Part shown: piece by piece, positions 12,793 through 49,284 of the stretch
Layout: every line of letters begins with the position of its first letter
How positions within the stretch are numbered: position 1 is the stretch's first letter
Virus record (IMG/VR): IMGVR_UViG_3300032304_000090
Coordinates: 1-49,284 of that record
DNA: 49,284 nt
Source: a virus
Strand: one strand, 5' to 3'
Made by a program: the position numbers and the translations under genes
Notes under the pieces: model-generated
The model's input: only the letters and a program-made list of their open reading frames with translations
Databases searched by the model: none
What the model was told of the DNA's origin: nothing

Positions 12793-12803
12793 GGGGAATT
12801 ACG

Positions 12804-13250: not shown

Positions 13251-13260
13251 GGGGTAGAAC

Positions 13261-14124: not shown

Positions 14125-14133
14125 GGAATTGAT

Positions 14134-14481: not shown

Positions 14482-14483
14482 AC

Positions 14484-16126: not shown

Positions 16127-16128
16127 TC

Positions 16129-16275: not shown

Positions 16276-16300
16276 CCATTGCGAGGTTTTAAATTGAGCT

Positions 16301-17620: not shown

Positions 17621-17621
17621 T

Positions 17622-20587: not shown

Positions 20588-20590
20588 ATC

Positions 20591-21565: not shown

Positions 21566-22050
21566 GCACACTACCAGCAGGGTACGACCCAATACCATTA
21601 GATGACTTTGAGCCTTTGCTCTTAGCCACTAAAGAGCATTTTGATGCGTATTGGCCTTCGACTAAACCTTTGTTGGAGCGTTGTATAAAACGTGCTATGC
21701 ATGGAGAGATGAGTGTAGACGACATTTATAACGCAGCACTTGCTGGCAAGATGTATATATTTGTTGTGAAATGTGATAAAACGATTACTAAGAGTGTGAA
21801 GCTGACACTTGCGATTGAAATTATTCCTTACCCAAAGTTGGCTGCGATGAATATTGTTGCGCTGGGTGGGAATGACTTGGACGCCTTACATGATAAGTAT
21901 TGGAAGATGCTTTGTGGTTGGGCGTATATGAACAGTGTCCGTGCTATTGAGGGATGGGTTTCCCCAGCAATGGAGCGGGTGATTTCTCGATATGGTTTTA
22001 AACCTGTGTATACACACATGCGACTCGAATTGACGGAGGCTATGAAATGA
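21562..22050 (+). CDS. GNAT-fold-like protein, possible internal virion protein A
   Basis: This 162-residue protein has the strand-helix order of a GNAT fold (MYIFVVKCDKTITKSVKLTL; LAIEIIPYPKLAAMNIVALGG; AIEGWVSPAMERVISRYGFKPVYTHMRLEL), but the acetyl-CoA R/QxxGxG loop is not visible. T7 gp13-type internal proteins are reported to resemble this fold. The gene immediately precedes large internal-virion-type genes, which fits. It may be enzymatically inactive. This is a fold-level guess. Confidence 0.55.
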   Translation: MSTLPAGYDPIPLDDFEPLLLATKEHFDAYWPSTKPLLERCIKRAMHGEMSVDDIYNAALAGKMYIFVVKCDKTITKSVKLTLAIEIIPYPKLAAMNIVALGGNDLDALHDKYWKMLCGWAYMNSVRAIEGWVSPAMERVISRYGFKPVYTHMRLELTEAMK

Positions 22051-23711: not shown

Positions 23712-23722
23712 AGGAGAGCATC

Positions 23723-25930
23723 ATGGCTCTTAACTTTGGGCAATTAATCGGTGGTGCTGGTATTGTTGCGGGTCGTCAGCGACAAGCTGAAAACGCAGAG
23801 ATTGAGCAACGTGGCAACTTGATGCGAATCCAAGAGGCTAATCGCCTTATGGAGATTCGTGCCCGTATGGGCGAAGGTACAAATGAAATAGCTAACGCTC
23901 CACTGCCACAGTTTGTGCAGACTCCGGGTACAGTTATTGGTAACCCCAATGCACCTACTGCACCTGCTCCTGCACCTGTTCCTGCACCTGCTCCTGCACC
24001 TGCTCCGGCTGCTGCACCTGCGTCTGCTACGTCTACGCCTGTTGCACCTCCTGCAAATGTACCTACAACTGCACTTCCGGCTGCACCTGCTGCGGGGTTG
24101 CGTACTCCTGCACAACTGGTTTCTATACCAACCGACCAGTTAACTTCTGCTGAGTTCCAAGCGCTATCGCCTCAAGAACGTCTTAAGCGATTGCAGATAG
24201 AAAATGACCGCCGCAAACTTAGTCGTATTGACACGGCTGTTGCTGCGCCACCTGCGGCTGCTTTTGATGTAGTAACACTCCCTTACACTGGGGCAGCTAC
24301 GCTTTTACAAAAAGGTCTTAACGCAGTTGACTTTGCTAGATTTGGTCGTGCCGCAGGTTTTTATGACCCTGATGTAACTAGCGTAACGATTCCGGGTGCA
24401 GGGTCAATTACTCCTTTTACCGACCGCCTACGTAAGTCAGATGCAGAAAACCAACCTATAACAGAAGCACAATTACTCGAGCGTTTAAAAGCAGGCGAAG
24501 CTACTAAAGCAAAAGCAATAGAAACTGAGCGTGTTAAAAATGCAGAGGTCGCCCAGAAGCAAGGTTTGGAAGACTGGCAACTGGATGCTAAGGGTAAACC
24601 CGTACGTGGTCTAGTAAATAACAACCCCGGCAATATCCGTCCTAGCACTCAGTACACATGGCAAGGTCAGGTTGGGATTGATAAAGGTGCGAAAGAAGCC
24701 GCAGGCTTTGTGCAATTTGCTTCACCTGAAGCAGGTATCCGTGCCATGACGCTAAACCTGTTGTCTTATGACCAGCAGGGTATTAACACAGTACAAGGAA
24801 TTATTAATCGCTGGGCACCTCCGTCTGAAAATAAGACAGGTGCATATATAAATCAAGTCGCAAAAGAATTAGGTGTTAAACCCACTGACACAATAAATCT
24901 CAAAGATGCAGCAGTTATGCGTCAGTTGGTTACTTCTATCATTCAATTTGAAAACGGAAAGAACCCATATAATGCTCAAATCATTGACACAGGCATTGCG
25001 CTCGGCTTTAACAAAGAGTCGCCAATTGTTACAGCAAGTACTGGAAAAGCTCCGCCAGTACCTACTCAAGCTCAAACAGTTACTCAAGCGGTAAACACAG
25101 GTACACCTAAAGATGTGGCAACTGCTGCGTCTACTGCTGTACCAGTACAACCTGCTAAAGATGGTGTGATGTATGGCCCTGCTCAGATTGACGCAAGTGC
25201 CCGCAATCCGCAAATCCAACAGTTATTAACTACTCGTGCTATGTTGCAAAAGCAAGTAGCTCTTTACAATCAGTATGGTATGGGTGACAAAGCCATAGAA
25301 GCTGCGGCTAAGATTCAAGCTATTGACCTTGGTATGTACAAGAACCAAGCAGACATCGGGCTTTATGAGGGCGCAACGACTGGTAACTTTAGCCGTGCTA
25401 TGTCTGTATTGTCTACCTTTACTGGTGCACCGCATCAAGTTCTTAGCCGTAACGATGGCAAGTTTGATTTGTATATTAACGGCAAGGTTGCTAAGTCTGG
25501 TCTTGAAGGGCCACAGGTCGAGCAACTTGTTCGTACGCAAGTGGATACAGATTACCGCCAACAACTTGCTAAACTACAAATTGAGCGTAGCGCAAAACGC
25601 TTTGATACTGATGAAGAAATTCGTAAGAAAGCTAGTGAAGAAACTTTACGTTCTGCTCGTGAGATTCAGCTTGAAATCCTCAAAGGTAATACCAAACTGG
25701 CTGAGGAAAAAATTAAATTGGCTGGCTTTAAACTTATTGGCTCTGGTGCTGGCGATGGTAAAGCCTATTACTCCAACGGTCTAGGCGATGTGTTTGTGAT
25801 TGATGGACAAAATAAAACAGCCACTATCAATGGTGCTAAAGTTGACCTTGGAGTAGTTGCACAACAAGTTTCCGGAGTAGATAGGAGTATTTGGAGTACC
25901 GTGAATCCTCCCCAACAAGTAGTCAGGTAA
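23723..25930 (+). CDS. Internal virion protein with lysozyme-like domain
   Basis: This 735-residue protein has an N-terminal segment similar in style to the preceding ejection proteins, a Pro/Ala-rich linker (residues 75-125), and a recognisable peptidoglycan hydrolase-type domain at about residues 295-430. That domain shows LVNNNPGNIRPSTQYTWQGQ, GFVQFASPEAGIRAMTLNLL, IINRWAPPSENKTGAYI and QVAKELGVKPTDTINL, a pattern of phage and PRD1-like virion transglycosylases. The C-terminal part (EEIRKKASEETLRSAREIQL) is helical. It probably opens the cell wall locally during DNA entry. I cannot see a proven catalytic residue by eye. Confidence 0.8.
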   Translation: MALNFGQLIGGAGIVAGRQRQAENAEIEQRGNLMRIQEANRLMEIRARMGEGTNEIANAPLPQFVQTPGTVIGNPNAPTAPAPAPVPAPAPAPAPAAAPASATSTPVAPPANVPTTALPAAPAAGLRTPAQLVSIPTDQLTSAEFQALSPQERLKRLQIENDRRKLSRIDTAVAAPPAAAFDVVTLPYTGAATLLQKGLNAVDFARFGRAAGFYDPDVTSVTIPGAGSITPFTDRLRKSDAENQPITEAQLLERLKAGEATKAKAIETERVKNAEVAQKQGLEDWQLDAKGKPVRGLVNNNPGNIRPSTQYTWQGQVGIDKGAKEAAGFVQFASPEAGIRAMTLNLLSYDQQGINTVQGIINRWAPPSENKTGAYINQVAKELGVKPTDTINLKDAAVMRQLVTSIIQFENGKNPYNAQIIDTGIALGFNKESPIVTASTGKAPPVPTQAQTVTQAVNTGTPKDVATAASTAVPVQPAKDGVMYGPAQIDASARNPQIQQLLTTRAMLQKQVALYNQYGMGDKAIEAAAKIQAIDLGMYKNQADIGLYEGATTGNFSRAMSVLSTFTGAPHQVLSRNDGKFDLYINGKVAKSGLEGPQVEQLVRTQVDTDYRQQLAKLQIERSAKRFDTDEEIRKKASEETLRSAREIQLEILKGNTKLAEEKIKLAGFKLIGSGAGDGKAYYSNGLGDVFVIDGQNKTATINGAKVDLGVVAQQVSGVDRSIWSTVNPPQQVVR

Positions 25931-34404: not shown

Positions 34405-37265
34405 ACCGCTTTGAGTTGACCGTAGGTTAAGTCTGTTACTGCTTGGTCAGCGTCATCCAAGATTCCCAGTAAGCGTGGGTGATTGAGGTTGATGCCGATT
34501 ACGTAGCATTGTGGAATCTTAATGCCAACATCTTTACCGAAGTATGCTTTCTGTGATTTCGGTGTGGCAATGATGCCCTCTGTTTCAAACTCTTGGACAA
34601 ACGCTTTGTAGTCATAGCCACGGGTGCTAAGCCACTTGCGTAACTTGGTTCTTTCAACAAGCACTGTGCCGCTTTCAAACTTACCATCGTAGGTTCTGCG
34701 ATACAAGTCATAACGCACAAGGATGTCTGCAATATACGGACGGTTGTTGTCCCGCATTGGCTTCTGACCGGGGGTGTGCATCACAGTCAAAGTTGCATCC
34801 ATGTTCTCGTTAATGAACTCGCCCAGTGCATCAAACGCATCCATACGATTAGTTGCCGCAGATACTTTCATGGACTTCAGTTCACCCAGTGCCCACTCAG
34901 TTGCGTCTTGATAGTCATACTGGATAAGCCCATACTCTTTAGCCAACTGGTTGCCTAAGTCTGAAAGCACAACACCGACCTCCCAAAAGCGTTCGTCTCC
35001 AGTAAAGCTAATTCCATACTTCTTAGGGAACTCATTGATGGCGTGGTCGAGCATTGCCTTTAGTCCATCTATACCCAACGGCATCAAGTGTTTAACAAAC
35101 TCTTGCCCTACTGTGCCGTAGTTATTCATTAGGAAAGCGTGAATCTGCCGACCCACTTGGCTACCCTTAGTAAACAATGGGTGCGGTGCAACATTAAACT
35201 CAAGCAGTCGAGCAAGCTTGGCGTCCGTAGCATGACCACCTGCGTACAACATACTGTGCAGTGATTCGTTAGTCGATACAGTCATAGTGGTCGCCCACTC
35301 TTTGGTTGCTCGTTCTTCTGCACTGCGGTTAAGTCGTGCCTTATCCCTACCTTGGGATGTCCAGTAGATAAGGTCGCCTGCTTCTTCACGGTCAAGCATT
35401 GTCAGTTCGTCTACTGTCATGGGTAGGTTGCCATGCAATGAAAGGCGTGAGAACAAACTGTTCTGTGTGAACTTCCCACCGAAATGGAGTTGGTCAGGAT
35501 TGCCCCATATGGATTGCATCATGTACTGACCTAGTGTCTTACCCCCGCCAGTCTTACCATACAAAGAAAGAATCAAACCTTTTAAGCCACTGACCTTGAG
35601 CAATGGTGTTGCAAATGAAAAACCGATTAGGAACTTGTGGAGTTTTAAATCAGCAGAGTCAAGGATGCGGGTAAAGTTAACCCACTCCTGCAAGTCGCCT
35701 TTCGTGCCGTACATATCCTCAGATATTTTTCCTACCCCTTGGGCTAGGTTGACTTGCTCAGTAGTGACTGTGCCGTTGGAGTCCCGGCGTAGAAGCGAAC
35801 TACCAATGACAAACTCGTTGTAGTTTGATTTCCAACCCATTGATGAATACAAGTTTGTTAGTCCTCGGCGTTGCTTCAACTCCTCCATGTATGAACGTAA
35901 AAGCATTTGGAAGTTTTCCGTTTGTGACTTGTTAAAAAGAAGGATGCCTTGGTCTGCGATTGTGGTAGAGAAGTCACGACTACCCTGCGCCAAGTTAGCC
36001 TGACGCATTACCAACTCAGTCCATCCAACGTGTGGACGATTCCACATAAAGCGAACAACCTCGTAGCCAAGTCCTTCATCTTTGCCATACCCCACTGGGT
36101 ATAAGTCGAACTTGCATACGTCAATATCTGTTTCCTCAATGACCATCTTCATACCATCAGTGGTACGTTTAAATGGCTTGGGTACTGGTACAACTGCGGC
36201 AAGAGGGTCAACCATAGCTGCCGTTGATTTGACTTCAGCTAGTTGTGTACCTAGTCTTGCGGGGCTACCAATCTTGTCCTTAAACTTACAACCCTTACAA
36301 CCATCAGGTCGCTCAAGCATAAACTTCTCGCACAGTGTTGGGCCTGTTGCGCCATTCTTCCAGTTCTCAATTTTGGTGATTACTTCACTCTCATTAAAAT
36401 TTTTATATTCTTTGCTCCATGTAATCGCAGTAGCTACTGGTTCTTGACAATAAGCGGCGACACCCATCATCTTCCACCAAAAGGGTTCAGTCACATTGTT
36501 CTGATTCTCAATACCCCATTTAATCTGTTGGCATCCTGCAACCACTCGCTCTGCATTTGCAGGTTGGTATTCATGTTTGACTGCTAGATTATCTAGCAAC
36601 GAGTTGCTGCGTGTCTGTTCAACGGGTAGCTCATAAGATGAGCCATGAGTAAAAGGTTCGAGTACCGCCCACAACTGGTTGTAGGTTACATCAGGTGCAT
36701 CACGCAACAATACCGCAGTCTTATTACCTTTGGGATTTATGCATCCAATCGGTCTAAGAATACGTGCACTATCCCCTGTCACACCAATATCAGGTGTGAA
36801 CCCTTTCTCTAAGCAAGCCGCTTTCAATGCGTTAGCCAATGGCTTCCACTGCGCAGGCGCAACCGCTACATCAAGAATCCAGTAAATATGTAATCCGTTA
36901 CCCGACGAAACAATCATCGGCATGGGTAGTCCAACATCTTTGACAAAGGCAATCAGAGCCTTGGCCCCTTCGCTTGCATCAATGAATGGCTTTGGCTTTC
37001 CATTCTTACCAATACCGCAGTCAACGTCTATCGCAAGTACTTTTGTACGCTCAACAAACTCCTGCTTCCTACGCTTCTCTGTGAATGTAGAGATGGCGTA
37101 GTACGTGTTTTGCCCCCTGCTATTTAGGGCAAGTGCAACTTGTGCGAGTTTTTCTACCGAATCAAAGTAGCCATGTCTTGGTGCAGGGTTATCCCGCTCA
37201 AAACTAGCTATACAATACAATCCTTCAGTTGGTAGTACTCGCTGAAAAAAACTCAGCGTGTCCAT
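34401..37265 (-). CDS. Primase-helicase (AEP-like primase with DUF927-type ATPase)
   Basis: This 954-residue protein combines primase and helicase functions for replication. The N-terminal part shows archaeo-eukaryotic primase-like motifs: AIDVDCG (D80, D82), SSGNGLHIYW (H126) and ARILRP (168-172). A Cys cluster (CEKFMLERPDGCKGCKF) follows. The C-terminal part has a Walker A GKTGGGKT inside LILSLYGKTGGGKTLGQYM, WGNPDQLHFGGKFTQNSLFS and DELTMLDREEAGDLIYWTSQ, as in DUF927 helicase-like ATPases. It should unwind DNA and make primers for the polymerase at 42072. Its stop overlaps that of the giant virion gene by four bases on opposite strands. Confidence 0.85.
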   Translation of the reverse strand: MDTLSFFQRVLPTEGLYCIASFERDNPAPRHGYFDSVEKLAQVALALNSRGQNTYYAISTFTEKRRKQEFVERTKVLAIDVDCGIGKNGKPKPFIDASEGAKALIAFVKDVGLPMPMIVSSGNGLHIYWILDVAVAPAQWKPLANALKAACLEKGFTPDIGVTGDSARILRPIGCINPKGNKTAVLLRDAPDVTYNQLWAVLEPFTHGSSYELPVEQTRSNSLLDNLAVKHEYQPANAERVVAGCQQIKWGIENQNNVTEPFWWKMMGVAAYCQEPVATAITWSKEYKNFNESEVITKIENWKNGATGPTLCEKFMLERPDGCKGCKFKDKIGSPARLGTQLAEVKSTAAMVDPLAAVVPVPKPFKRTTDGMKMVIEETDIDVCKFDLYPVGYGKDEGLGYEVVRFMWNRPHVGWTELVMRQANLAQGSRDFSTTIADQGILLFNKSQTENFQMLLRSYMEELKQRRGLTNLYSSMGWKSNYNEFVIGSSLLRRDSNGTVTTEQVNLAQGVGKISEDMYGTKGDLQEWVNFTRILDSADLKLHKFLIGFSFATPLLKVSGLKGLILSLYGKTGGGKTLGQYMMQSIWGNPDQLHFGGKFTQNSLFSRLSLHGNLPMTVDELTMLDREEAGDLIYWTSQGRDKARLNRSAEERATKEWATTMTVSTNESLHSMLYAGGHATDAKLARLLEFNVAPHPLFTKGSQVGRQIHAFLMNNYGTVGQEFVKHLMPLGIDGLKAMLDHAINEFPKKYGISFTGDERFWEVGVVLSDLGNQLAKEYGLIQYDYQDATEWALGELKSMKVSAATNRMDAFDALGEFINENMDATLTVMHTPGQKPMRDNNRPYIADILVRYDLYRRTYDGKFESGTVLVERTKLRKWLSTRGYDYKAFVQEFETEGIIATPKSQKAYFGKDVGIKIPQCYVIGINLNHPRLLGILDDADQAVTDLTYGQLKAV

Positions 37266-37280
37266 AATATCCCCGTTATT

Positions 37281-37299
37281 GGGGGGTAGTTAGCCCCCC
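37281..37299 (-). promoter_or_regulatory. Hairpin upstream of primase-helicase
   Basis: On the minus strand GGGGGG pairs with CCCCCC around a seven-base loop (CTAACTA), just before AATAACGGGGATATT and the ATG of the primase gene. There is no T tract, so it is more likely a message-stability or translation-modulating hairpin than a terminator. Confidence 0.5.
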
Positions 37300-37306
37300 C
37301 TGTCCC

Positions 37307-37594
37307 TCAGTTAAAACGCTTCATAAGTTCGTCAAGGCGTTCTTTCCTCTGCTTTTGTTCCATAGCAATGACGGCAGGTGTAGGCCATTTGTCATCTACC
37401 ATAATAGAAAGCAATTGTTTGAGGACAGTCCTGACAGTACCATCGTTAGCTTTGCGGATAACTTTCCCCCGCACCCAACCATAATACGTCATACGACTGA
37501 CACCGAATAGGGAAGCCATGTCACTGGTTGTCAGCATCATGTGCTTCCGCAATGCCTCGACCTTTGTAAAGTCAATAGGCATATTAGGCGTCAT
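37307..37594 (-). CDS. Small HTH DNA-binding protein
   Basis: This 95-residue protein contains a helix-turn-helix at about residues 20-42 (MLTTSDMASLFGVSRMTYYG), typical of Cro/C1-type regulators, and a helical charged C-terminus (EQKQRKERLDELMKRFN). The ATG at 37594 is supported by GGGGAGG nine bases upstream and overlaps the stop of the upstream gene by 11 bases. It probably regulates early or replication transcription or binds an origin. Confidence 0.8.
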   Translation of the reverse strand: MTPNMPIDFTKVEALRKHMMLTTSDMASLFGVSRMTYYGWVRGKVIRKANDGTVRTVLKQLLSIMVDDKWPTPAVIAMEQKQRKERLDELMKRFN

Positions 37595-38552
37595 CTGCGG
37601 CTACCTCCCCGACAAGTGCGGCAATCTCATCAGCCAATGATGCGGCAGATGGGGCAGTAGCAACAGGCTGAGCCTTAGCCTGTGGGGTAGCAACTGCCTT
37701 TTTAGGAGCACCAAAACCACGCTTCGCAGGAGCAGGTTGTTCTGCCACGGGGATAGGAGCAGGTTCAGGTTGAGCCACTACGGGAGCGGGCTTCGGTGCA
37801 ACTTGTTGTGGTGCGGCAATCTTTGGTACTGCCGGGGCAGCAGACGTACGCAACTCACCTGTAATCTGACGAACTTCTTCTGTGCCAAACAGTCTATCAA
37901 CTTCTTGTTGGGTCACTTCATCCAAGAAACCGCCAAAGTCAAACTTCAGTTTGGGGAATGATGCATCGGTATCAAAGGACACACGAGTACGGACAATCTC
38001 AGCAGGGATACCACGCAGAGACAACTCCTTTTGGTATTTGCTTAAGCCTTGCAGTGCGGCAGGGGTAACTTGCAACAGGTAGATTGGGCCTGTTGGGTCA
38101 TCGGCAGACACAACTGCTAAACGCTTTTGGTCAGAGCAGGCTTTGATTTGCTTGCCTTGCGGAGTCACTTTGCTACCCCATGCGTTTTGTGGGCAAGATG
38201 CACACAGGTCATTCTGTGGTTCAGTGGCTTGGGTATCAGGGCTAACACCATCCAAAGAGAAACAGTCAGGGCTAGATGGTTCGCTCTCAGGTGTCCACGC
38301 CTTGGCATACCAAGTCTTAGATAGGCGTGGGTTAGCACCGACTACAACAATGTCCAAAGACGTAGAGTCAAGCACAGTCTCAGTACCACCTTCGGCAATA
38401 CGGAAGCGACTACCTTTAATAGAGATACGTGCAGTAGCTTCGCCACCACCAATACCGCCACTTAAGGACTGAGATAAAACAGAAGGGACACCAACACGTT
38501 GGGCGAGGTGGGAAGGAACTTGCACGTTAGCAAGAGTAATTGCATTGCTCAT
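37584..38552 (-). CDS. Putative ssDNA-binding protein
   Basis: This 322-residue protein has an N-terminal beta-rich domain with four cysteines at C97, C117, C120 and C139 (DCFSLDG, DLCASCPQNAWGS, KACSDQKRL), suggesting a zinc site. A beta stretch (KRLAVVSADDPTGPIYLLQV) follows, then a Pro/Ala/Gln/Lys-rich disordered linker (residues 240-305) and an acidic C-terminal end (AALVGEVAADDA). That layout is typical of phage ssDNA-binding proteins, whose acidic tails recruit partners. It lies among the replication genes. The name is inferred from architecture; an unknown zinc-binding replication protein is possible. Confidence 0.6.
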   Translation of the reverse strand: MSNAITLANVQVPSHLAQRVGVPSVLSQSLSGGIGGGEATARISIKGSRFRIAEGGTETVLDSTSLDIVVVGANPRLSKTWYAKAWTPESEPSSPDCFSLDGVSPDTQATEPQNDLCASCPQNAWGSKVTPQGKQIKACSDQKRLAVVSADDPTGPIYLLQVTPAALQGLSKYQKELSLRGIPAEIVRTRVSFDTDASFPKLKFDFGGFLDEVTQQEVDRLFGTEEVRQITGELRTSAAPAVPKIAAPQQVAPKPAPVVAQPEPAPIPVAEQPAPAKRGFGAPKKAVATPQAKAQPVATAPSAASLADEIAALVGEVAADDA

Positions 38553-38576
38553 AGATATTCTCCTTTAGTGAGCGGG

Positions 38577-38798
38577 TTAAATACGATTGGTCGCACGTTT
38601 AGCTTTAGCAAAACCACTGGTTAAGCTATTGTTTTGCATTGCCACTGCTCGTGCTTTTTCAGTGGCAAACATCTCTAGTTGATTCTCATTACTGATATTC
38701 AGCTTGCGCTTTACTTTATCTGCCGTAACATGTTCTGTTATGGCTTGGTGTGCCCCATCGTAAGCGGCTTGCATAATCCATCTACGTAGCCATTCCAT
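38577..38798 (-). CDS. Small unknown protein
   Basis: This 73-residue protein begins after a clear GGAGG ribosome binding site and has one base between it and the next gene upstream. It is helical with basic ends (WLRRWIMQAAYDGAHQAITE; SGFAKAKRATNRI). I recognise no family. Position between the ssDNA-binding and coiled-coil genes suggests a replication or recombination accessory role. Confidence 0.65.
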   Translation of the reverse strand: MEWLRRWIMQAAYDGAHQAITEHVTADKVKRKLNISNENQLEMFATEKARAVAMQNNSLTSGFAKAKRATNRI

Positions 38799-38799
38799 G

Positions 38800-39204
38800 T
38801 TAGTCCTCCACTCGGTTAGCGGGTTTACGAATGTTCACTTCTAACTTTGTGCCGTAGTTAACTCCGGGGGGTACGGCTTTATTTGCCTCAATATATCCAC
38901 GTACGGCAATCTTACTGATGCGTTTCTCAAGCATGTCAAACGCTTCTTGTGTGCGGATAAAATCAAGTACTGCATCCCAGTCGCCTACGTTGGCATAGTC
39001 TGTGGTGGTTAAGAACGCAGTGCCATGCTTGGTCTTGAACGATGTCACACCTTGTATGTCAGCTTGTTCTTTAATCCATGCTTCTAACTTCTCCATCTTG
39101 GCTTTGATGGTAGACACTCTGTCCTTCACCTCAGCCTCCATAGCTTCCTTCTGCGACCTCAACTTCATGTAGGTCGCCACTACATCATCTACTTGTACAG
39201 TCAT
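38800..39204 (-). CDS. Coiled-coil protein, unknown function
   Basis: This 134-residue protein starts at ATG 39204 with AGGTGA upstream; a GTG at 39213 lies inside that site. It has an N-terminal coiled coil (ATYMKLRSQKEAMEAEVKDR; KAKMEKLEAWIKEQADIQG), then beta segments (SFKTKHGTAFLTTTDYANVG) and DMLEKRISKIAVRGYIEANK. Similar helical proteins in phages are sometimes annotated as Gam-like nuclease inhibitors; I can only say that layout and location among nucleases and a helicase would permit this. Confidence 0.65.
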   Translation of the reverse strand: MTVQVDDVVATYMKLRSQKEAMEAEVKDRVSTIKAKMEKLEAWIKEQADIQGVTSFKTKHGTAFLTTTDYANVGDWDAVLDFIRTQEAFDMLEKRISKIAVRGYIEANKAVPPGVNYGTKLEVNIRKPANRVED

Positions 39205-39209
39205 AGTTG

Positions 39210-40763
39210 TCACCTATTAGTCTGTTGTTGAATTAAATCAAGAAGCAGTCCCTGCAATTTCTGCTTGTTCTTCAATCGCTCGTACATCTTGTACTCAAGG
39301 TCTGTCGCCTCGATGTGAATGACGTTCGATACATGCTTCTTGCCGATACGCTCAATGCGCCCGTTTGCCTGAACATATTGTTCGTTGCTAGTTATCGGGC
39401 CATACCAGACAATGGTGGATGCACTTGTTAGCGTTAAGCCGTGCGCCATTGTTGCGGGGTGAGCAATTAACACACGTGGATTTTTCTCATGCTGAAAGTC
39501 ATGGAAAATTTGGTTGCGCTTTGATGCAGATACCTCACCATTCACAACCGCTACTGTCCAATGCTTGCTAAGTTCTTTCTCCAACATATGCAAAGTACCC
39601 GTCAGTGGTACGAATACAATTACCTTTTCTCCTGCTTCTTCAATTACCTCCTTTACTAAGTTAACACGTGGGGTACAGTCCAACTCAATGTTCTGTCCAT
39701 CGTCACCATAGGCTACACCACAGGCTATCTGAACTAACTTCTGAATTTTGACTGCTTCATTAACTGCCGTGATAGTTCCATCGGTAGTCATCTCGGTTAC
39801 GAAATGCCGTAGCATTTGCGAATAATGTTTCTTCTGTTCGGGTGTCAACTCTACCTGTCTTGTCTGTACAACTGTATCAGGCAAGTCAAAGCACTCATCA
39901 CGGGTATACCTTACCGCAGGTTGTAGGATGTGCTTCACTATATCTACTGACTCAGGGCGAGGTACAAACTTCCATTGCCCAATCTTCATCATGACCTGTT
40001 CACGGAAAGCCGTATATGTTTTTGTACAGTATGGACTGTTAACTAATTTAGCCAGTGCCCATGCATCTGTTGGGTCGTTGGGTGTAGGTGTCCCAGTCAT
40101 CAACCACAAACGTGTTGCTGAATTAGCTTCCAACCATTTACGGAATACCTTAAACCTTTGTGTCGATGGGTTACGTAGCACCGCCGCCTCATCAATGATT
40201 ACCAAATCAAACATACCTAATGCTTGTTCAGAGATGATGTTAAAGCCATCATGGTTAATGATGTAGAAGTCAACCTCTTTCCTAAGAAGTTGTTTGCGTT
40301 TGTCTGCCGTACCATGAAGCACAGTAAATTTACGATGAGGGAATCCTGTAAAGATTGCATCGCCCCATACCCGTTCCAATGTGGATAGTGGAGACATGAT
40401 GAGCACCTTCTTGACCTGCTTAGTCTTAATCAAATAGTCCGCCGCCCATAGTGCAGATTGGGTTTTACCAGTGCCGATTTCATTCAACACTAACCCGCGT
40501 TGATTAAGCGTCAAGAACGCTGATGTTTGTTTCTGATGTTCGTATGGGGTGTACTGTCCACACCAATCGTAGTAATGTAGGATGGGTGAGGGCGCATCAA
40601 TACCCAAGTTGCGTAGCACACGTACTTCATCAAGGCTATGTGGAGTAAGGACAAGCGGGATACCCCGAACCATCACAGTCTTTGCAGTCGGAATACTGTC
40701 AAGTACCCGATTGGGATTGTTTAATTTAAGTGCAAGGGTCTTAGCCCTTTCAACTACTAGCAT
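39210..40763 (-). CDS. SNF2-type DNA helicase
   Basis: This 517-residue protein is a superfamily 2 helicase/translocase. It has a Q-like region (YTPYEHQKQTSAFLTLNQRG), a Walker A box (LVLNEIGTGKT) near residue 95, motif II DEAA in LVIIDEAAVLRNP, motif III LWLMTGTPTPNDP, and C-terminal motifs V-VI (HPATMAHGLTLTSASTIVWY, VQANGRIERIGKKH). The spacing and TGTP signature match SNF2-like proteins of phages. I chose the ATG at 40763; the alternative TTG at 40778 overlaps the upstream stop. It is coupled to a VRR-NUC nuclease gene, a common phage pairing in repair, recombination or host DNA processing. Confidence 0.92.
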   Translation of the reverse strand: MLVVERAKTLALKLNNPNRVLDSIPTAKTVMVRGIPLVLTPHSLDEVRVLRNLGIDAPSPILHYYDWCGQYTPYEHQKQTSAFLTLNQRGLVLNEIGTGKTQSALWAADYLIKTKQVKKVLIMSPLSTLERVWGDAIFTGFPHRKFTVLHGTADKRKQLLRKEVDFYIINHDGFNIISEQALGMFDLVIIDEAAVLRNPSTQRFKVFRKWLEANSATRLWLMTGTPTPNDPTDAWALAKLVNSPYCTKTYTAFREQVMMKIGQWKFVPRPESVDIVKHILQPAVRYTRDECFDLPDTVVQTRQVELTPEQKKHYSQMLRHFVTEMTTDGTITAVNEAVKIQKLVQIACGVAYGDDGQNIELDCTPRVNLVKEVIEEAGEKVIVFVPLTGTLHMLEKELSKHWTVAVVNGEVSASKRNQIFHDFQHEKNPRVLIAHPATMAHGLTLTSASTIVWYGPITSNEQYVQANGRIERIGKKHVSNVIHIEATDLEYKMYERLKNKQKLQGLLLDLIQQQTNR

Positions 40764-40767
40764 GTTG

Positions 40768-41076
40768 TCACCTGTCAAGTTTCTCTTGTATAACTACACT
40801 CAGTTGGTCAGTGGTTTCTTGGTCAAAAACAACCATCCACCAACCACCTGCCTTCTGTATCTTTGCACCGCACTGCATCTGCAAGGCAGTAGGCTTCTTT
40901 GTCCTATCTGCTTTAACCTCAATGCCAAGGAACTGCCCCCTGACTATGGCTATGATGTCGGGTATTCCTGCCATCCCAAAGCCGTTGTTTGCAGGGAAGA
41001 AATACCAAATACCTTTTGCCTTTAACACCTCGACAACCTTACGTTTTACCTTACCTTCGGGTGTCATAGCACTCAT
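40768..41076 (-). CDS. VRR-NUC domain nuclease
   Basis: This 102-residue protein is a single VRR-NUC nuclease domain of the PD-(D/E)XK superfamily. The catalytic pattern is complete: PD at 39-40 (AGIPDIIAI), EVK at 53-55 (FLGIEVKADRTKK) and Q66 in TALQMQCG. Stand-alone phage VRR-NUC proteins are structure-selective or Holliday-junction-like nucleases. It ends four bases before the helicase start, so the two are likely produced together. Confidence 0.92.
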   Translation of the reverse strand: MSAMTPEGKVKRKVVEVLKAKGIWYFFPANNGFGMAGIPDIIAIVRGQFLGIEVKADRTKKPTALQMQCGAKIQKAGGWWMVVFDQETTDQLSVVIQEKLDR

Positions 41077-41118
41077 CTTACGCCCCTTTACACACTTGTC
41101 AAGTTTTATTTTATTAGG

Positions 41119-41778
41119 TTAAACCCTAGCACTGTCACAGTCATGACGAGCAGGGCAAAACCTGCACAATCCTGATGGTCTAGCAGGCCAGTTGTCGTGC
41201 TCTAAACTTGTATGAATACGTTGTATACGCTTCATAATGTCTGCCCATAGCGTGTTGGTTTCCCCTCTGTGGTAGGTCTCTGTGTCCATCTCCATTGTCT
41301 TGAGCCATACCAAAGAAGTGCGTACTGATTGCACGTCAGGGAAGTGCTTGAACACTTGCGCAGCGAACAGTTGCATTTGGAATTGGTCAGCATTTCGCTT
41401 GCCTGTTTTCCAATCCATCACGTTCGCAATGTTTTTATTGATTACAAGAATGTCAAGTTTAGAACGTAGCCATGCGTCAGCATCCCACCAACCTGTTGGT
41501 GTAAGGTTGTCGTTAAGGACTAGCTCTTTCTCGATGTGTAGTTCACCCCCCTTTGAGATACGCTCGACCGATGCACACAGGGGTTCATAGTGAGCAATCT
41601 CTTGGGGCAGTAGGGAAGCAGACTTAAGCCTATGCTCAAGGTATTCATGGATGCGTTCGCCATACTTACTAGCCTCACCACCTGCATCAACAACATCTTT
41701 AACAATGCGTTGCCGAAAGTAGCGATACGGGCAGTTCTCGTATAGCTTAATTGCCGAATAGGAATGGCTTAAGTGCAT
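41119..41778 (-). CDS. Cas4/RecB-like PD-(D/E)XK exonuclease with Fe-S cysteines
   Basis: This 219-residue protein resembles Cas4/RecB-type exonucleases. It shows C16 in YENCPYRY, H44 in GERIHEYLE, D109 in RSKLDIL and the DWKTGK box with D122 and K124. A C-terminal cluster, C205, C208 and C214 in GLCRFCPARHDC, completes four cysteines that could hold a 4Fe-4S cluster. It probably processes DNA ends in recombination or replication. There is no CRISPR array or other cas gene, so it is not part of a CRISPR system here. TATAAT lies two bases upstream of its start. Confidence 0.85.
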   Translation of the reverse strand: MHLSHSYSAIKLYENCPYRYFRQRIVKDVVDAGGEASKYGERIHEYLEHRLKSASLLPQEIAHYEPLCASVERISKGGELHIEKELVLNDNLTPTGWWDADAWLRSKLDILVINKNIANVMDWKTGKRNADQFQMQLFAAQVFKHFPDVQSVRTSLVWLKTMEMDTETYHRGETNTLWADIMKRIQRIHTSLEHDNWPARPSGLCRFCPARHDCDSARV

Positions 41779-41838
41779 AAATTATAGCCCCTCGGGGTGT
41801 CCTTGGGGTTCTCTGTTTGTTGGAAAGTACAGTGTACC

Positions 41839-42072
41839 TCACTCATGCATACGGCGCAAGATGTCGTACTTTAATATTTCCAACTGGGCAATTACCTCAG
41901 TTACGTTGTCTATCTTGGTGGAGTAGCGCATGTATTTGTCATCTGCCTTAAGCATGATAAGAACATCAGTCGCACCCCCCTCCTCGACACGTGCCATTGC
42001 CGACTCCAACATGGCAACAACTTCCTGCTTGCGGGTATTTCCTACTATTTCAGTCAAGTTTGTGATGCTCAT
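41839..42072 (-). CDS. Small unknown protein downstream of polymerase
   Basis: This 77-residue protein begins at an ATG overlapping the polymerase stop by one base (TAATG), with GGAGA upstream. It is helical (NTRKQEVVAMLESAMARVEE; VTEVIAQLEILKYDILRRMH) with a short beta pair (ATDVLIMLKADDKYMRYST). I recognise no family; position suggests a replication accessory. Confidence 0.65.
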   Translation of the reverse strand: MSITNLTEIVGNTRKQEVVAMLESAMARVEEGGATDVLIMLKADDKYMRYSTKIDNVTEVIAQLEILKYDILRRMHE

Positions 42073-43949
42073 TATGTATCTCCATAGTTAGTTGCGTAGC
42101 CTGCTTCGCAAGCCACAGGTAAATCGGTACACCAGCTAGGTGCAGTGGACATAATCCTGACAAGATGTTGCTCTGCCTCTGATGCCCTGTCCTCCGGGGC
42201 CGTGATGATAATCTCATCATGTACTTGGAAAGCCACGTGGTAGTGTTGCCCAATGGCAGTCATCTGTTCTGATACAACAATCCTAGCCATCGCTTGAATG
42301 AGGTTCTCTGTGACCTTACCCCCATAGATTTTTGTCCATGAGATTTCGTCTACCTGTCCAGTTATGACTCGTTCTTTGATTGCCTTACGATATGTTCGTG
42401 CATCACTGATGTATTCATAGTTCGTTCCGTTGGCACGGAGTGCGGGATAGCGGATGTACAAGCTGTTGGGTAGCCTAATGCCTTGCTCGTCATACTCCAA
42501 CATCTTTGCAATAGAGCCTGTCTGTCTTGCTACGATGCCACCCAGTGCGCTTCCACACTTCTGCCATAGAGAAACAATCTTGTGATTCTTCTGTCTATAT
42601 AGACGCACAATCCTGTCAGCTTGGTCTAGGCTAATCTTCACACTAATATCACCTTGCCCAATCTCTAGGGTACGTCTGAACTTCTCAGCCCCCATGCCAT
42701 AGCCAAGTCCCAAGATACAAGTCTTACCAACAAATCGTTCTACCTTGTCATCCTTGGTGATGGCTCGCCCATAAACTTCTGATGCGAACTCACTATATAC
42801 ATCACGACCTTGTGCAAACGCACTAACTAAATCGTGTTGCTCTGCTACCCACGCTACCATGCGGGCCTCAATCTGTGATGAATCACATGCCACAAGAACT
42901 TGTCCTTTGGGTGCTTTCAATGCCCGTCGGATTGTGTTGTTCCCACGAGCAGGTAAGTTCTGCAAGTTCAGCTTGTCACCACCCGAGAACCTGCCTGTGT
43001 GCGCACCATAATAGTTGAGCATGATTGGCAGGCGACCTCGCTCGGACACTCCAATCAAATTTTCGGTGCGAGTTTCTTCTAGTGTGGACTTCACGCCGAG
43101 CCTCGCAGCGACCGCAACCTGAACCTTCTCATTAGGATGCTCGAGAAGTTCGATGAACTCTTTGTCGGTCTTTCCGAACGCAAGCGTTTCCTTGCCTGTG
43201 CGAGGGCTTATCTTTTTTGGTGGCTCGACCCCGAGGTTGGTGAGATACTTCGCAAAGATTTGATTACTCATCAACGTCTTGGTGATTGCTTCGTCACTGA
43301 TACCAGTGAGTCCCATGTCAGTGATAAGGTCACGCTTTTTTGCTTTGACTTCCTCAAGATGTTGCTCTAAGAGTTCCCTGTCAAGTTCAATCGTAGGCTC
43401 GGTGTACATGCGTAGTGTTTGGTCAATGACCATCAACTCACTGGTAGGAAATCCTTTGCATAACTTCTTGAACAACTGATAGGTTAAGTCCACATCGTTT
43501 TTGCAGTACTCCCCATATCGTGCAAGTTCTTCGGGTGTGAAGTCTGCTTTGCGTTTACCTAGTGCAAGGATAACTTCTTCACCTTTAGCCCCCAACTTAT
43601 AGTAAGTAGCCAATGCTTTGAGCGAACCCCCCACAGTCATCTGATGGGTTGGTCTTGCCATAGATAAAGTATCAAGCCACAACTTCGGCTTGATTCCATA
43701 ATGCCACGATAAGATTGCACCATCAAAGGCGGTGTTATGACAAAGGATTGCCTTGTCTGAATAGTCAAGCGACTTCAGGAACTTGGCAGGGTCACTGCCT
43801 GAGTACCAGTCCGTAGGGTAATTGTTAACCTTGATGCCTACCCCGATGACCTCAAACAAATCGCTACGAACATACTGTTCGGTGGTCATCTTCGATAGAC
43901 TAAAGTCTTTGTCATAGTACGTTTCAAAGTCTATGGTCACGATGTCCAT
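42072..43949 (-). CDS. DNA polymerase, family A with 3'-5' exonuclease
   Basis: This 625-residue protein replicates the phage genome. The N-terminal DnaQ-like proofreading domain has DFETYYD, LCHNTAFDGAIL and YGEYCKNDVDLT (exo motifs I, II, III). The polymerase domain shows motif A CDSSQIEARMVAW, motif B around KTCILGLGYGMGAEKF, and motif C QVHDEIII. It has no 5' nuclease domain. I chose the ATG at 43949, preceded by GAGAG; the ATG at 43973 lies inside the upstream gene. Length and layout fit T7-like family A polymerases. Confidence 0.95.
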   Translation of the reverse strand: MDIVTIDFETYYDKDFSLSKMTTEQYVRSDLFEVIGVGIKVNNYPTDWYSGSDPAKFLKSLDYSDKAILCHNTAFDGAILSWHYGIKPKLWLDTLSMARPTHQMTVGGSLKALATYYKLGAKGEEVILALGKRKADFTPEELARYGEYCKNDVDLTYQLFKKLCKGFPTSELMVIDQTLRMYTEPTIELDRELLEQHLEEVKAKKRDLITDMGLTGISDEAITKTLMSNQIFAKYLTNLGVEPPKKISPRTGKETLAFGKTDKEFIELLEHPNEKVQVAVAARLGVKSTLEETRTENLIGVSERGRLPIMLNYYGAHTGRFSGGDKLNLQNLPARGNNTIRRALKAPKGQVLVACDSSQIEARMVAWVAEQHDLVSAFAQGRDVYSEFASEVYGRAITKDDKVERFVGKTCILGLGYGMGAEKFRRTLEIGQGDISVKISLDQADRIVRLYRQKNHKIVSLWQKCGSALGGIVARQTGSIAKMLEYDEQGIRLPNSLYIRYPALRANGTNYEYISDARTYRKAIKERVITGQVDEISWTKIYGGKVTENLIQAMARIVVSEQMTAIGQHYHVAFQVHDEIIITAPEDRASEAEQHLVRIMSTAPSWCTDLPVACEAGYATNYGDT

Positions 43950-44130
43950 TGGTTCTCTCAATCTCCTGTGCAATCCACAGGTTTAGTAGCCGAGTTTGAA
44001 ATAAAAGTTCCTGTGACTTAGCACGAGCATCGGCATACTCGTGTGATAACAAGCACTGGTGGATTTCTTTATTAAGTCTGTCCATACACAACATGATTGT
44101 TGAGTAATCAAAGAACTCATAGTTATTCAC
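43924..44130 (-). CDS. Small helical unknown protein
   Basis: This 68-residue protein most likely starts at GTG 44130, which overlaps the membrane peptide stop by eight bases (GTGAATAA), the same arrangement as at the preceding junction. ATG codons at 44094 and 44085 are alternatives. It is helical and charged (RLNKEIHQCLLSHEYADARA) and overlaps the polymerase start by 26 bases. No family is recognised. Confidence 0.5.
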   Translation of the reverse strand: MNNYEFFDYSTIMLCMDRLNKEIHQCLLSHEYADARAKSQELLFQTRLLNLWIAQEIERTNGHRDHRL

Positions 44131-46634: not shown

Positions 46635-46844
46635 TTACTCCTCCTTCTTACTTAGGTTATATACTGTTATCTGTGCTTGCTCTAACACCTCGTCAATGTT
46701 AAGCATCTCTTGTGTCGCAGGGTCATCAGGATATAACTCTTTGACAAGATACGATAAGTTGTTGATTGTTTGTATTGCTTGGTCTGCTACGTTCATACGT
46801 ATCTCCTGCTTTAGTTGTTTATAAAACGGACTCTCTATCGTCAT
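46635..46844 (-). CDS. Small helical unknown protein
   Basis: This 69-residue protein overlaps the stop of the vWA gene by four bases (ATGA). It is helical and acidic (FYKQLKQEIRMNVADQAIQT; LNIDEVLEQAQITVYNLSKK). No family is recognised. It may work with the adjacent MoxR/vWA module. Confidence 0.65.
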   Translation of the reverse strand: MTIESPFYKQLKQEIRMNVADQAIQTINNLSYLVKELYPDDPATQEMLNIDEVLEQAQITVYNLSKKEE

Positions 46845-48007
46845 TTCATCACCACCACTTCACCGAATGGGGCATCACCTTCCATTGTGGATACCCACAG
46901 TACAGGGTATGCAGGTTGGTCACCGAAGTCATTACAACATAAGTCAGTCAAGAATACACAGGCTACGGGGTTGATGTCATAGTCAGCAAAGTACTTGAAC
47001 ACAGGGCTAAAGGCAGTACCTCCACCGCCGTGTGCCTTGATGTTTAAGCTATCGTCACGCTCATACTTCTCGTAGTGTGATACCTCGCTATCGAAGTACA
47101 CCACATGGATACGTACTGGGTTGCCATCTTCCTTGATAGCAGTAATCTCACCTTCAAACTGGGCAAGAATGTCATCGTCAATAGAACCTGAGCAGTCAAC
47201 TGCGATAGCCATTTCACCGAGTGCTTCACCACTTACGCTTGGTAGATATAGCCCTTGTGATAAGAACCTACGATTAGGTCTAGCGAATGTACGTTGGTCA
47301 CTCTTGCACTTTTCTACAAACTTATGAAGCACATCACGCCAATCTACTTTAGGTGCAAGTACATCATTGACCAGTCGCTCTAGTCCTGCACTCATTTTGC
47401 CCATCATTTTAGCGGCTTGTGCCGCTTGTGCTACACGGACTTTCCACTCTGCTTGTTGTTGGGCTTGTTCGGCAGGGGTGTTGCCACCATCTTGGCAGTC
47501 ATCCATAGCTTCAGTACCATCACCGCCACCACCTTCATCAGGTTCATCAGGCAACAAGTTGTAGATACCATCGGTCGTTTGATTACCTGCTTGGTACAGT
47601 TGTGGGTTAAGCAGTCCGAAGGATGGCATCTTGCCAATATTCTCATCGGTCAGCAGTTGATTAATCACATAGTCACCTGCCTTATTCCACCGCTTGTGCT
47701 GACGCTCACCTCGTCTGAAGTTATGGTCAAGCATGGGGTGTAAGCACTCATGGGCTACAACAAACTTACGTTCCTCATCGTTTAGTTCCTTGATGAAGTA
47801 TGGGTTGTAACCTATACGCTTGCCATTTGTCCATGCAGTCTTGCATGTATAGTCTTTAGTAAAGGGCATATTCAATGCCACGTTACCAATGAAGGGGTGT
47901 TCAAGTACCAATGCGGTACGTGCCTTGGCAAGTAGTCGGTCAATGGCTACTTCCTCTGCACTGGTCATTGGCTCTCTGTCTTTATGGTTAGGTACGACTG
48001 AGGTCAT
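46841..48007 (-). CDS. Metallopeptidase-like / vWA-like protein (DUF2201 type)
   Basis: This 388-residue protein joins an N-terminal metallopeptidase-like domain to a C-terminal von Willebrand A-like domain. HECLH at residues 86-90 is the zinc-binding motif (KFVVAHECLHPMLDHNFRRG). A Gly/Asp/Gln-rich linker follows at 155-205. The vWA-like domain has DCSGS at 271-275 (AVDCSGSIDDDI), a MIDAS-type metal site, and FLTDLCCNDFG near the end. This two-domain layout is known from proteins paired with MoxR-like ATPases, as seen just upstream. It may act in remodelling a target complex. It is coupled to the small gene at 46635. Confidence 0.88.
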   Translation of the reverse strand: MTSVVPNHKDREPMTSAEEVAIDRLLAKARTALVLEHPFIGNVALNMPFTKDYTCKTAWTNGKRIGYNPYFIKELNDEERKFVVAHECLHPMLDHNFRRGERQHKRWNKAGDYVINQLLTDENIGKMPSFGLLNPQLYQAGNQTTDGIYNLLPDEPDEGGGGDGTEAMDDCQDGGNTPAEQAQQQAEWKVRVAQAAQAAKMMGKMSAGLERLVNDVLAPKVDWRDVLHKFVEKCKSDQRTFARPNRRFLSQGLYLPSVSGEALGEMAIAVDCSGSIDDDILAQFEGEITAIKEDGNPVRIHVVYFDSEVSHYEKYERDDSLNIKAHGGGGTAFSPVFKYFADYDINPVACVFLTDLCCNDFGDQPAYPVLWVSTMEGDAPFGEVVVMK

Positions 48008-48008
48008 A

Positions 48009-48857
48009 TCAAATTCCTTTCATGAATACGGACATCTTGTCCATGATTTGTTTAGCTTCTACTGCCGTGTCACGGCGTAGGTCGGGGTCATTACGTAGTG
48101 CTTCAGGATGTTTAAGTAACGCACCTTCTACTTCTAGTCTTAAGGCTTCAAGGTTAGGGTCATCCATGAAGTTAAGTCTTGGCAGTAGGGCACACATCTC
48201 TTTGGTGTTCTCTACTAGGGTGTCACGGAATATAGCTTTGGGGTCTGCTAACTTCTCAGCCATATGCTTGACACGTTCGTATAGTCTGTCCCATACCTCT
48301 TTCATAGCTACGTTCTGTGCTTCTGCTACTCTACGCTCAACATCTTCTTGGATGCGAGTAAGTTCTTCAGAAGCAATGCTCACACGGAAGTCGCTACTGG
48401 GCACAGGGAATATCGCCATGTCCATTCTGAACTTACGTGCTATCTCCACCTCATCAGGGTAGTCAGCATCGTTGTATAGCCCGTTGAGTAACCGCTTGGC
48501 ATCCAGTCGCAACTGGTCATAGTTCTGTATGAACTGGTCAACAAGGTACTGCCACTCATTCTTTTCCTTACGGAAGTCAGTCATGAAGGCAAGGTAGTTG
48601 GCAGAGGGTAGCATCTGCGTACCCTCCATACCCCAAGGTAAAGTGTTGTCGTAGAACTTAGTGCGGATATGGGTAGTTTTCTTATGTACATGGTCAAGCA
48701 GGTCATTGGCAGGCAGTAATGCCTTGTTGTATCTACCTGCTTGGGTAGATGTGCCGTAAGTATTGGCAACATCTTGTGTTGCTTTTTTGTCATACTTGCG
48801 AGCAGTCCATTGGGATACGGATAACTGTACAAGTAAGGCTCTGTCATTCAGATTCAT
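48009..48857 (-). CDS. DUF3150-like protein of MoxR/vWA module
   Basis: This 282-residue helical protein matches DUF3150-like phage proteins by length, context and pattern: LVQLSVSQWTARKYDKKATQ, SANYLAFMTDFRKEKNEWQY, PSSDFRVSIASEELTRIQED and RLYERVKHMAEKLADPKAIF. The family occurs between MoxR ATPase and vWA genes in phages, and its function is not known. It begins after GGAGTACC and ends one base before the vWA gene. Confidence 0.8.
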   Translation of the reverse strand: MNLNDRALLVQLSVSQWTARKYDKKATQDVANTYGTSTQAGRYNKALLPANDLLDHVHKKTTHIRTKFYDNTLPWGMEGTQMLPSANYLAFMTDFRKEKNEWQYLVDQFIQNYDQLRLDAKRLLNGLYNDADYPDEVEIARKFRMDMAIFPVPSSDFRVSIASEELTRIQEDVERRVAEAQNVAMKEVWDRLYERVKHMAEKLADPKAIFRDTLVENTKEMCALLPRLNFMDDPNLEALRLEVEGALLKHPEALRNDPDLRRDTAVEAKQIMDKMSVFMKGI

Positions 48858-48884
48858 AGTAGGTACTCCTTCTGTTGGTTAGGT

Positions 48885-49284
48885 TTAGAACAATACGTCT
48901 TGGTGTTTCATTGCCCACTTGGTAAACGCTTGCGTGTTAGACAGTTCGGGTTTCTTACGTGAGGCATACGACACAGTAAGCACCGAGAAGTCAGCAGGCA
49001 TACGCTCTGCATAGGTACAGACCCGTTCAAAGTTGCCTTCAGTAGCACGTTCAGCAATAGCACCACTCAGGGCATACAGGGTGGCAGGGTCAGTCGGCAC
49101 GTCAGCAGTTGTCGGGTTCATCAGTACTGCATCAGGGTTAGGTAGCTTACGGAATACCTTTACAAAGCCTACAAACTCAGCCGCCGCACCTTCACCCACT
49201 GCACCCTTGAAGGACTCATACTCTGCATCAAAGGGCACAGTACCAATCACATCAGATACACCCTCTACCCATGAACGAGGCGTA
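48885..49284 (-). CDS. MoxR-like AAA+ ATPase, C-terminal part
   Basis: The frame is open to the right window edge, so only the C-terminal 132 or so residues are present. It opens with TPRSWVEGVSDVIG, a segment typical of the AAA+ C-terminal lid (sensor 2) of MoxR-like ATPases, and continues with a helical domain (AAEFVGFVKVFRKLPNPDAV; ALSGAIAERATEGNFERVCT). Walker motifs lie outside the window. GTG 49250 is not the true start. The neighbours (DUF3150-like and vWA) strongly support this identification. Confidence 0.75.
   Translation of the reverse strand, partial: TPRSWVEGVSDVIGTVPFDAEYESFKGAVGEGAAAEFVGFVKVFRKLPNPDAVLMNPTTADVPTDPATLYALSGAIAERATEGNFERVCTYAERMPADFSVLTVSYASRKKPELSNTQAFTKWAMKHQDVLF

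What the first reader, a model, noticed from the sequence alone, without database searches (positions are those of the whole stretch)
46841..49284. Phage MoxR-DUF3150-vWA/metallopeptidase module
Three consecutive genes encode a MoxR-like AAA+ ATPase (partial), a DUF3150-like protein and a protein with HECLH and DCSGS sites. In cells, MoxR-vWA pairs act as chaperones that activate or remodel target proteins. The phage version has intact metal-site motifs in both domains of the vWA protein, and its purpose is not established. It may remodel a host complex, assist virion assembly or counter defence.
Basis: partly seen in the sequence, partly recalled or inferred. Interest (0 to 1): 0.65.

Follow-up and report, generated by a model that had tools for sequence, protein, structure and literature searches.

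The report
Phage/plasmid MoxR–DUF3150–metallopeptidase-vWA trio
Three neighbouring genes of a freshwater phage encode a ring-type ATPase, a helical partner and a protein joining a zinc-peptidase site to a metal-binding adhesion domain; the same three-gene set, in the same order, sits on conjugative plasmids, so its job is unlikely to be only building virus particles.

Summary
On the minus strand at 46841-49284 lie the C-terminal 132 aa of a MoxR/midasin-like AAA+ ATPase, a 282-aa protein distantly related to DUF3150, and a 388-aa DUF2201 protein (HECLH zincin site plus complete MIDAS). The window ends inside the ATPase; full-length relatives carry Walker A, sensor 1, arginine finger and sensor 2, but Walker B is DD instead of DE. 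The ATPase was adjacent in 106 of 107, and the vWA gene in 110 of 110, viral loci long enough to show it. The phage MoxR/metallopeptidase-vWA pair was described before (jumbo phages; N4 gp24-gp25 is another). New here: the third component, the same trio on Burkholderiales plasmids, and a parallel ATPase-DUF3150-HExxH/vWA set on pCAR1, IncC and related plasmids near ssb/recT/exo genes. In two plasmid lineages the peptidase site has decayed while MIDAS stays intact. The trio lies with replication/recombination genes, opposite the virion genes. I favour an ATP-driven remodelling machine with an optional peptidase, acting on replication-stage or host proteins rather than virions. Its target is unknown.

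The parts
48885..49283 (-). C-terminal 132 aa of a MoxR/midasin-like AAA+ ATPase (5' part beyond the contig end); contains the sensor-2 PRSW motif but not Walker A/B
   Evidence: PHROG 1297 E=1.5e-23; 100% identical to the C-terminus of complete relatives (L003:4968-5951) that carry Walker A/B
48009..48857 (-). 282-aa, predicted mostly helical DUF3150-like third component
   Evidence: ORF; remote match to PF11348; AlphaFold2 pLDDT 77, no PDB match at E<=0.001
46841..48007 (-). 388-aa DUF2201 protein: N-terminal zincin-type putative metallopeptidase plus C-terminal vWA domain
   Evidence: PF13203 E=7.7e-47, PF09967 E=4.1e-26; model pLDDT 81, C-terminus aligned to vWA domains at Z about 12
47738..47752 (-). 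HECLH zinc-site motif (residues 86-90)
   Evidence: HExxH in every viral relative examined; decayed in two plasmid lineages
47672..47674 (-). Asp112 of the WNxAxDxxIN motif, proposed third metal ligand
   Evidence: invariant in A6; in Paraburkholderia it becomes Gln together with loss of HExxH
47183..47197 (-). MIDAS DCSGS (residues 271-275); completed by T331 (47015-47017) and D355 (46943-46945)
   Evidence: DxSGS-T-D invariant in A6 and kept even where HExxH is lost
46635..46844 (-). 69-aa ORF overlapping the end of the vWA gene; often separated from it by an inserted ORF in relatives
   Evidence: not a constant part of the module
34401..43973 (-). Co-oriented replication/recombination genes downstream: PolA (42072-43973), PD-(D/E)XK exonuclease (41119-41778), Hjc-like resolvase (40768-41076), SNF2-type helicase (39210-40778), primase/helicase (34401-37265)
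1827..25930 (+). Virion genes on the opposite strand: terminase, portal/head-tail adaptor, major capsid, internal virion proteins (context, not part of the module)
   Evidence: PHROG matches

Best explanation
The three genes encode one ATP-driven protein-remodelling machine. The MoxR-like ATPase forms a ring (inferred from its family). The vWA domain docks on the ring and holds a target or partner through its MIDAS metal (inferred from NorQ-NorD and midasin). The N-terminal zincin can cut the presented protein, and the helical DUF3150-like protein is the dedicated third subunit that bridges or selects targets (inferred). It acts during the early/replication phase on nucleoprotein or host complexes, not on virion proteins. 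The peptidase is an optional output: some plasmid lineages lost it while keeping the ring, the third subunit and MIDAS. Shown here: gene identity, motifs, conserved order, purifying selection, occurrence on plasmids, neighbourhoods, coordinated loss of the peptidase site. Inferred: assembly, catalysis, role of the third subunit, timing, target.
For: Conserved trio order: ATPase next to the middle gene in 106/107 and vWA in 110/110 viral loci with room to show it. Among contigs chosen by capsid gene only, 8 of 12 have the middle gene and the same 8 have the vWA gene. Contiguous trio on Burkholderiales plasmids (in Simplicispira, several small ORFs intervene), often beside type IV secretion genes. 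Related trio with true DUF3150 and an HExxH-vWA protein on pCAR1, IncC and other plasmids, mostly near RecT/Bet, lambda-type exonuclease or ssb. In the phage it is co-oriented with PolA, exonuclease and helicase, opposite the virion genes. N4 gp24-gp25 lies ahead of the replication genes. ATPase profile matches midasin best in the PDB (E=5e-32). MIDAS is kept where HExxH is lost, and that is the only copy found in the genomes or plasmids searched. NorQ-NorD structures give the docking model (PMC13036017).
Against: No target or interaction was tested. Walker B is DD in the window clade, which could weaken ATP hydrolysis. Phage genes of unrelated function also share operons, so position is weak evidence. 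The link between the phage middle protein and Pfam DUF3150 rests on one domain-sized remote match, and the two kinds of HExxH-vWA protein could not be shown to be homologous (hhalign probability 9).
Confidence: 0.42

Rival explanations
1. Virion-assembly chaperone with processing peptidase, as proposed for the jumbo-phage MoxR/metallopeptidase-vWA pair and for ATV p618/p892.
For: Published proposal for the same pair architecture (PMC7824862); vWA-MoxR pair reported for Acidianus two-tailed virus tail development (cited in PMC7911831).
Against: The same trio is on plasmids without virion genes; in the window it lies with replication genes on the strand opposite the virion genes.
Confidence: 0.18
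2. Counter-defence or host-takeover machine: the ring and peptidase dismantle a host defence or regulatory complex that threatens incoming phage and plasmid DNA alike.
For: Shared by tailed phages and conjugative plasmids, which meet the same defences; MoxR-vWA-third-component sets are known in conflict systems (PMC7159879).
Against: Presence in most long contigs of the phage clade and strong purifying selection fit a core function better than a patchy anti-defence gene; no convincing match to PADLOC families.
Confidence: 0.25
3. Metal-cofactor or metallo-enzyme maturation factor, like NorQ-NorD, CoxD-CoxE or CobS-CobT.
For: Well-studied MoxR-vWA pairs insert metals or activate metallo-enzymes (PMC13036017).
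Against: No cognate metallo-enzyme next to the trio in phage or plasmids inspected; the phage ATPase shows no CbbQ_C domain whereas pCAR1's does.
Confidence: 0.06
4. Largely non-catalytic scaffold: the DD Walker B ATPase hydrolyses poorly and the peptidase is vestigial, so the complex only holds partners through MIDAS.
For: DD Walker B across the window clade; peptidase site lost in Paraburkholderia and Variovorax relatives.
Against: Walker A, sensor 1, arginine finger and sensor 2 kept; HExxH and Asp112 kept in every viral sequence examined.
Confidence: 0.09

Closest known systems
Jumbo-phage MoxR AAA+ / metallopeptidase-vWA chaperone pair (Iyer et al. 2021, PMC7824862)
   Same: MoxR ATPase next to a vWA protein with N-terminal metallopeptidase domain, in phages
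   Different: The published passage describes no DUF3150-like third gene; here a trio, DD Walker B, plasmid counterparts, and a replication-side location
Phage N4 gp24-gp25 and other Schitoviridae
   Same: ATPase plus DUF2201-type protein, placed ahead of the replication genes
   Different: No DUF3150-like gene between them; Walker B is DE; gp25 is labelled HNH endonuclease although its sequence has the HExxH and MIDAS motifs
pCAR1 ORF101-ORF103 block and kin on R478, Rts1, SXT, R391 (PMC2642839)
   Same: MoxR ATPase, DUF3150 protein and HExxH plus vWA protein in one operon
   Different: vWA protein about 600 aa and not demonstrably homologous to DUF2201; ATPase has a CbbQ_C domain and a DE Walker B
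NorQ-NorD, RavA-ViaA
   Same: MoxR ATPase with vWA/MIDAS partner
   Different: Two components with cellular targets; no peptidase part mentioned in the passages read
MoxR-vWA ternary conflict systems (VMAP, iSTAND, FtsH, beta-propeller; PMC7159879)
   Same: MoxR-vWA couple plus a third conserved protein
   Different: Third component here is a helical DUF3150-like protein; carriers are phages and plasmids; no attached effector domain seen other than the zincin

Membership tests
MoxR-type AAA+ ATPase | Walker A GxxxxGK[ST] | tested here: met
   GSPGGGKT and variants in complete relatives; not inside the window
MoxR-type AAA+ ATPase | Walker B with catalytic Glu (DE) | tested here: not met
   FDD in the window clade, LDD in D3150-type plasmids; DE in N4, SBP1, L047, MinM2. 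Membership of the wider clade does not depend on it; canonical catalysis does
MoxR-type AAA+ ATPase | Sensor 1 Asn, Arg finger, sensor 2 Arg | tested here: met
   STGN, LRNR, PRSW
MoxR-type AAA+ ATPase | Sequence kinship to midasin/MoxR clade and gene next to a vWA gene | tested here: met
   Profile match to midasin E=5e-32; linkage via the middle gene
DUF2201 (PF13203 + PF09967) | Both Pfam domains above the curated cut-offs | tested here: met
   160.6 vs 23.2 bits and 92 vs 26.4 bits
vWA domain with MIDAS | DxSxS, Thr, Asp and vWA fold | tested here: met
   DCSGS-T331-D355; model Z about 12 to vWA structures
Zincin metallopeptidase | HExxH plus third ligand | tested here: inconclusive
   HExxH met; Asp112 proposed from invariance and co-loss; geometry and zinc not tested
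Zincin metallopeptidase | Peptidase activity | not testable with these tools
   needs purified protein
DUF3150 (PF11348) | Pfam match at gathering score | tested here: not met
   window protein has no PF11348 match; plasmid relative 22.1 vs 24.9 bits; profile-profile 88.5% over about 116 columns, hence 'DUF3150-like' only
Jumbo-phage MoxR/metallopeptidase-vWA pair | Neighbouring MoxR and metallopeptidase-vWA genes in a phage | tested here: met
   (one gene apart)
Jumbo-phage MoxR/metallopeptidase-vWA pair | Role in virion assembly (proposed) | not testable with these tools
   position and plasmid occurrence argue against
MoxR-vWA ternary conflict systems | Third component of VMAP, iSTAND, FtsH or beta-propeller type | tested here: inconclusive
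   third protein has no Pfam, NCBIfam or PADLOC match of these kinds and is predicted helical; no direct profile comparison with VMAP or iSTAND was made

The most novel reading that the evidence does not exclude
An unnamed three-part remodelling machine (MoxR ATPase, DUF3150-type subunit, HExxH-vWA protein) is shared by tailed phages and a large share of the more than a thousand plasmid records that carry DUF3150, where it services ssDNA replication/recombination or disarms a host barrier common to both kinds of element.
Probability: 0.3. Interest if true: 0.75.

Novelty: new variant of a known kind. Interest (0 to 1): 0.47.

Why it matters
MoxR-vWA machines have known targets in only a few cases. 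This variant is conserved in many freshwater phages and has a counterpart on IncC and related plasmids, yet I found no tested function. Its presence on both kinds of element makes the published virion-assembly idea testable and points to a shared need of invading DNA. Naturally peptidase-dead relatives give a ready comparison of the remodelling and cutting roles.

Tried and rejected
Structure search with the middle protein gave no PDB match at E<=0.001; its fold stays unassigned, and the model is only moderate (pLDDT 77). Weak Pfam hits to the middle protein (PspAA and others) are chance level. The PHROG/GenBank label 'HNH endonuclease' for the vWA protein was rejected: Pfam finds only DUF2201 domains above cut-off. 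Homology of the DUF2201 protein to the pCAR1/IncC HExxH-vWA protein was tested and not shown. I first suspected that DD Walker B goes with having the DUF3150-like partner; two trios (L047, MinM2) have DE, and the tree makes DD one clade (93/96 support) rather than a rule. PADLOC and NCBIfam gave only generic P-loop or HExxH hits. No paper in the library mentions DUF3150. A paper on genome-wide knockdown of phage genes (PMC11879866) had nothing on N4 gp24/gp25 in its main text. The SetCD-regulon paper had no mention of the genes searched for. Host could not be assigned; no tRNA in the window.

Full report
What is there. The window is a single 49,284-base virus record, cut at the end that matters here. 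It encodes a tailed phage with terminase, portal/head-tail adaptor, major capsid, internal virion and tail-fibre genes on the plus strand and PolA, a PD-(D/E)XK exonuclease, a Hjc-like resolvase, an SNF2-type helicase and a primase/helicase on the minus strand. The three genes of the finding head this minus-strand block: ATPase (partial, 48885-49283), middle gene (48009-48857) and vWA gene (46841-48007), with gaps of 27 bp and 1 bp.

The vWA protein. It is a full DUF2201 protein: putative metallopeptidase domain PF13203 (E=7.7e-47) and vWA-like domain PF09967 (E=4.1e-26). HECLH lies at residues 86-90 and the MIDAS residues are D271, S273, S275, T331 and D355. An AlphaFold2 model from 28 relatives has mean pLDDT 81; its C-terminal part aligns with solved vWA domains at Z about 12. 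The HExxH part matches the small archaeal peptidase selecase weakly by sequence (E=0.009) and by fold.

The peptidase site can be lost. In every viral relative examined HExxH and the following Asp motif are intact. In Paraburkholderia loci (L052, L064-L066) HEVLH has become LKVMQ and the N and D of the second motif have changed with it; in a Variovorax plasmid (L147) HExxH is gone as well. These are separate branches of the vWA tree: pIII (L052) is sister to a relative with an intact site. The decayed copy is the only one found in the genomes or plasmids searched (L065 could not be searched). MIDAS is complete in all of them. Coordinated change suggests that Asp112 is the third metal ligand (inference) and shows that peptidase activity is not always needed.

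The ATPase. Complete genes in relatives, 100% identical to the window over the 132 aa it holds, show Walker A, sensor 1, arginine finger and sensor 2. The best solved relative by profile is midasin (E=5e-32). Walker B ends in DD, not DE, across the window clade and in the related plasmid and Cloacimonadota-MAG copies; N4, SBP1, phiFa, pSYSA, pTHEOS01, pRBH2-3 and two D3150-bearing phage copies (L047, MinM2) have DE. On the ATPase tree the DD forms are one group (93/96). Whether the DD ring hydrolyses ATP well is open.

The middle protein. The window protein matches no Pfam family. Its family matches DUF3150 (PF11348) by profile-profile comparison over about 116 N-terminal columns (probability 88.5, E=2.7e-6), and the Cupriavidus plasmid member scores 22.1 bits against a cut-off of 24.9. 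It is predicted mostly helical (pLDDT 77) and has no PDB match.

Co-occurrence. In viral loci with enough flank the ATPase lies upstream in 106 of 107 (the exception has another ORF and then the contig end) and the vWA gene downstream in 110 of 110; about 81 of the 119 loci are distinct, and two scans overlap in contigs. In 12 long contigs picked by capsid gene alone, 8 have the middle gene and the same 8 have the vWA gene; the four without may be incomplete. All three genes are under purifying selection (dN/dS 0.07-0.19).

Beyond phages. The middle protein finds 44 plasmid records, mostly Burkholderiales. In pBMC401, P. dioscoreae pIII, C. taiwanensis and pRK1-1 the order ATPase, middle, vWA is exact; in Simplicispira small ORFs intervene. 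Several lie near PRTRC genes and type IV secretion genes. True DUF3150 proteins occur on 1,118 plasmid records, 969 of them typed conjugative. In the six inspected (pCAR1 and five others) they lie with a MoxR ATPase and a protein of about 600 aa with its own N-terminal HExxH, a conserved EDxxIE and a C-terminal MIDAS; RecT or Bet, lambda-type exonuclease or ssb genes are close by in the five other than pCAR1, and on pCAR1 an ssb-recT unit lies some 10 kb away (PMC2642839). On IncC, ssb, bet and exo sit between ATPase and DUF3150. The pCAR1 block and its kin on R478, Rts1, SXT and R391 were noted in 2009 (PMC2642839). The two kinds of HExxH-vWA protein could not be shown homologous.

Mechanism. 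From NorQ-NorD, where the vWA partner inserts a finger into the ATPase pore and its linker is twisted (PMC13036017), I infer that the ATPase ring here moves the vWA domain relative to the N-terminal zincin, while MIDAS holds a target. The third subunit may select targets or couple the parts. The published idea for the phage pair is virion assembly (PMC7824862). Against it stand the location with replication genes, N4 gp24-gp25 ahead of the replication genes, and the plasmids. I therefore favour an early, replication-stage or host-directed role, with counter-defence as the main rival. None of this has been tested.

Verdict. Real, conserved, and a new variant of a known kind: the MoxR/metallopeptidase-vWA pair is known; the third component and the shared phage-plasmid distribution were not found described in the papers searched. 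Interest moderate.

Noticed in passing
46841-48007; PHROG 1314; N4 gp25 (L148:2165-3307): The DUF2201/vWA family is labelled 'HNH endonuclease' in PHROGs and in many phage records, yet Pfam finds only DUF2201 domains; probably a propagated misannotation.
   Followed up: partly
L052, L064-L066, L147: Peptidase-dead DUF2201 proteins on Paraburkholderia and Variovorax elements, MIDAS intact, only copy found.
   Followed up: yes
L051, L052, L053, L056: The plasmid trio lies several kb from PRTRC genes (ThiF-like, protein A and others); a possible tie between protein tagging and the ATPase/peptidase module.
   Followed up: partly
L055:4027-5838 and kin: NorD- or VWA-annotated proteins of pCAR1, IncC and other plasmids carry an unannotated HExxH plus EDxxIE motif, suggesting a zincin domain.
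   Followed up: partly
45998-46633: ORF with a sub-threshold match to Nmad5 (nucleotide modification associated domain, E=9e-5).
   Followed up: no
between the vWA gene and the 69-aa ORF, e.g. L069:9023-9613: Accessory ORF (about 197 aa, no Pfam match) inserted in many relatives, absent from the window.
   Followed up: no
25939-34404: Very long ORF of 2,821 aa after the virion genes; not examined.
   Followed up: no
L149 (A. baumannii pRBH2-3): Listed as a plasmid but carries a DNA-directed RNA polymerase and an N4-like ATPase/HNH/DUF2201 cluster; may be an N4-like phage or phage-plasmid.
   Followed up: no
L061: A contig binned in an 'uncultured actinobacterium' MAG has the trio (middle protein 67% identical) and looks like phage DNA.
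   Followed up: no
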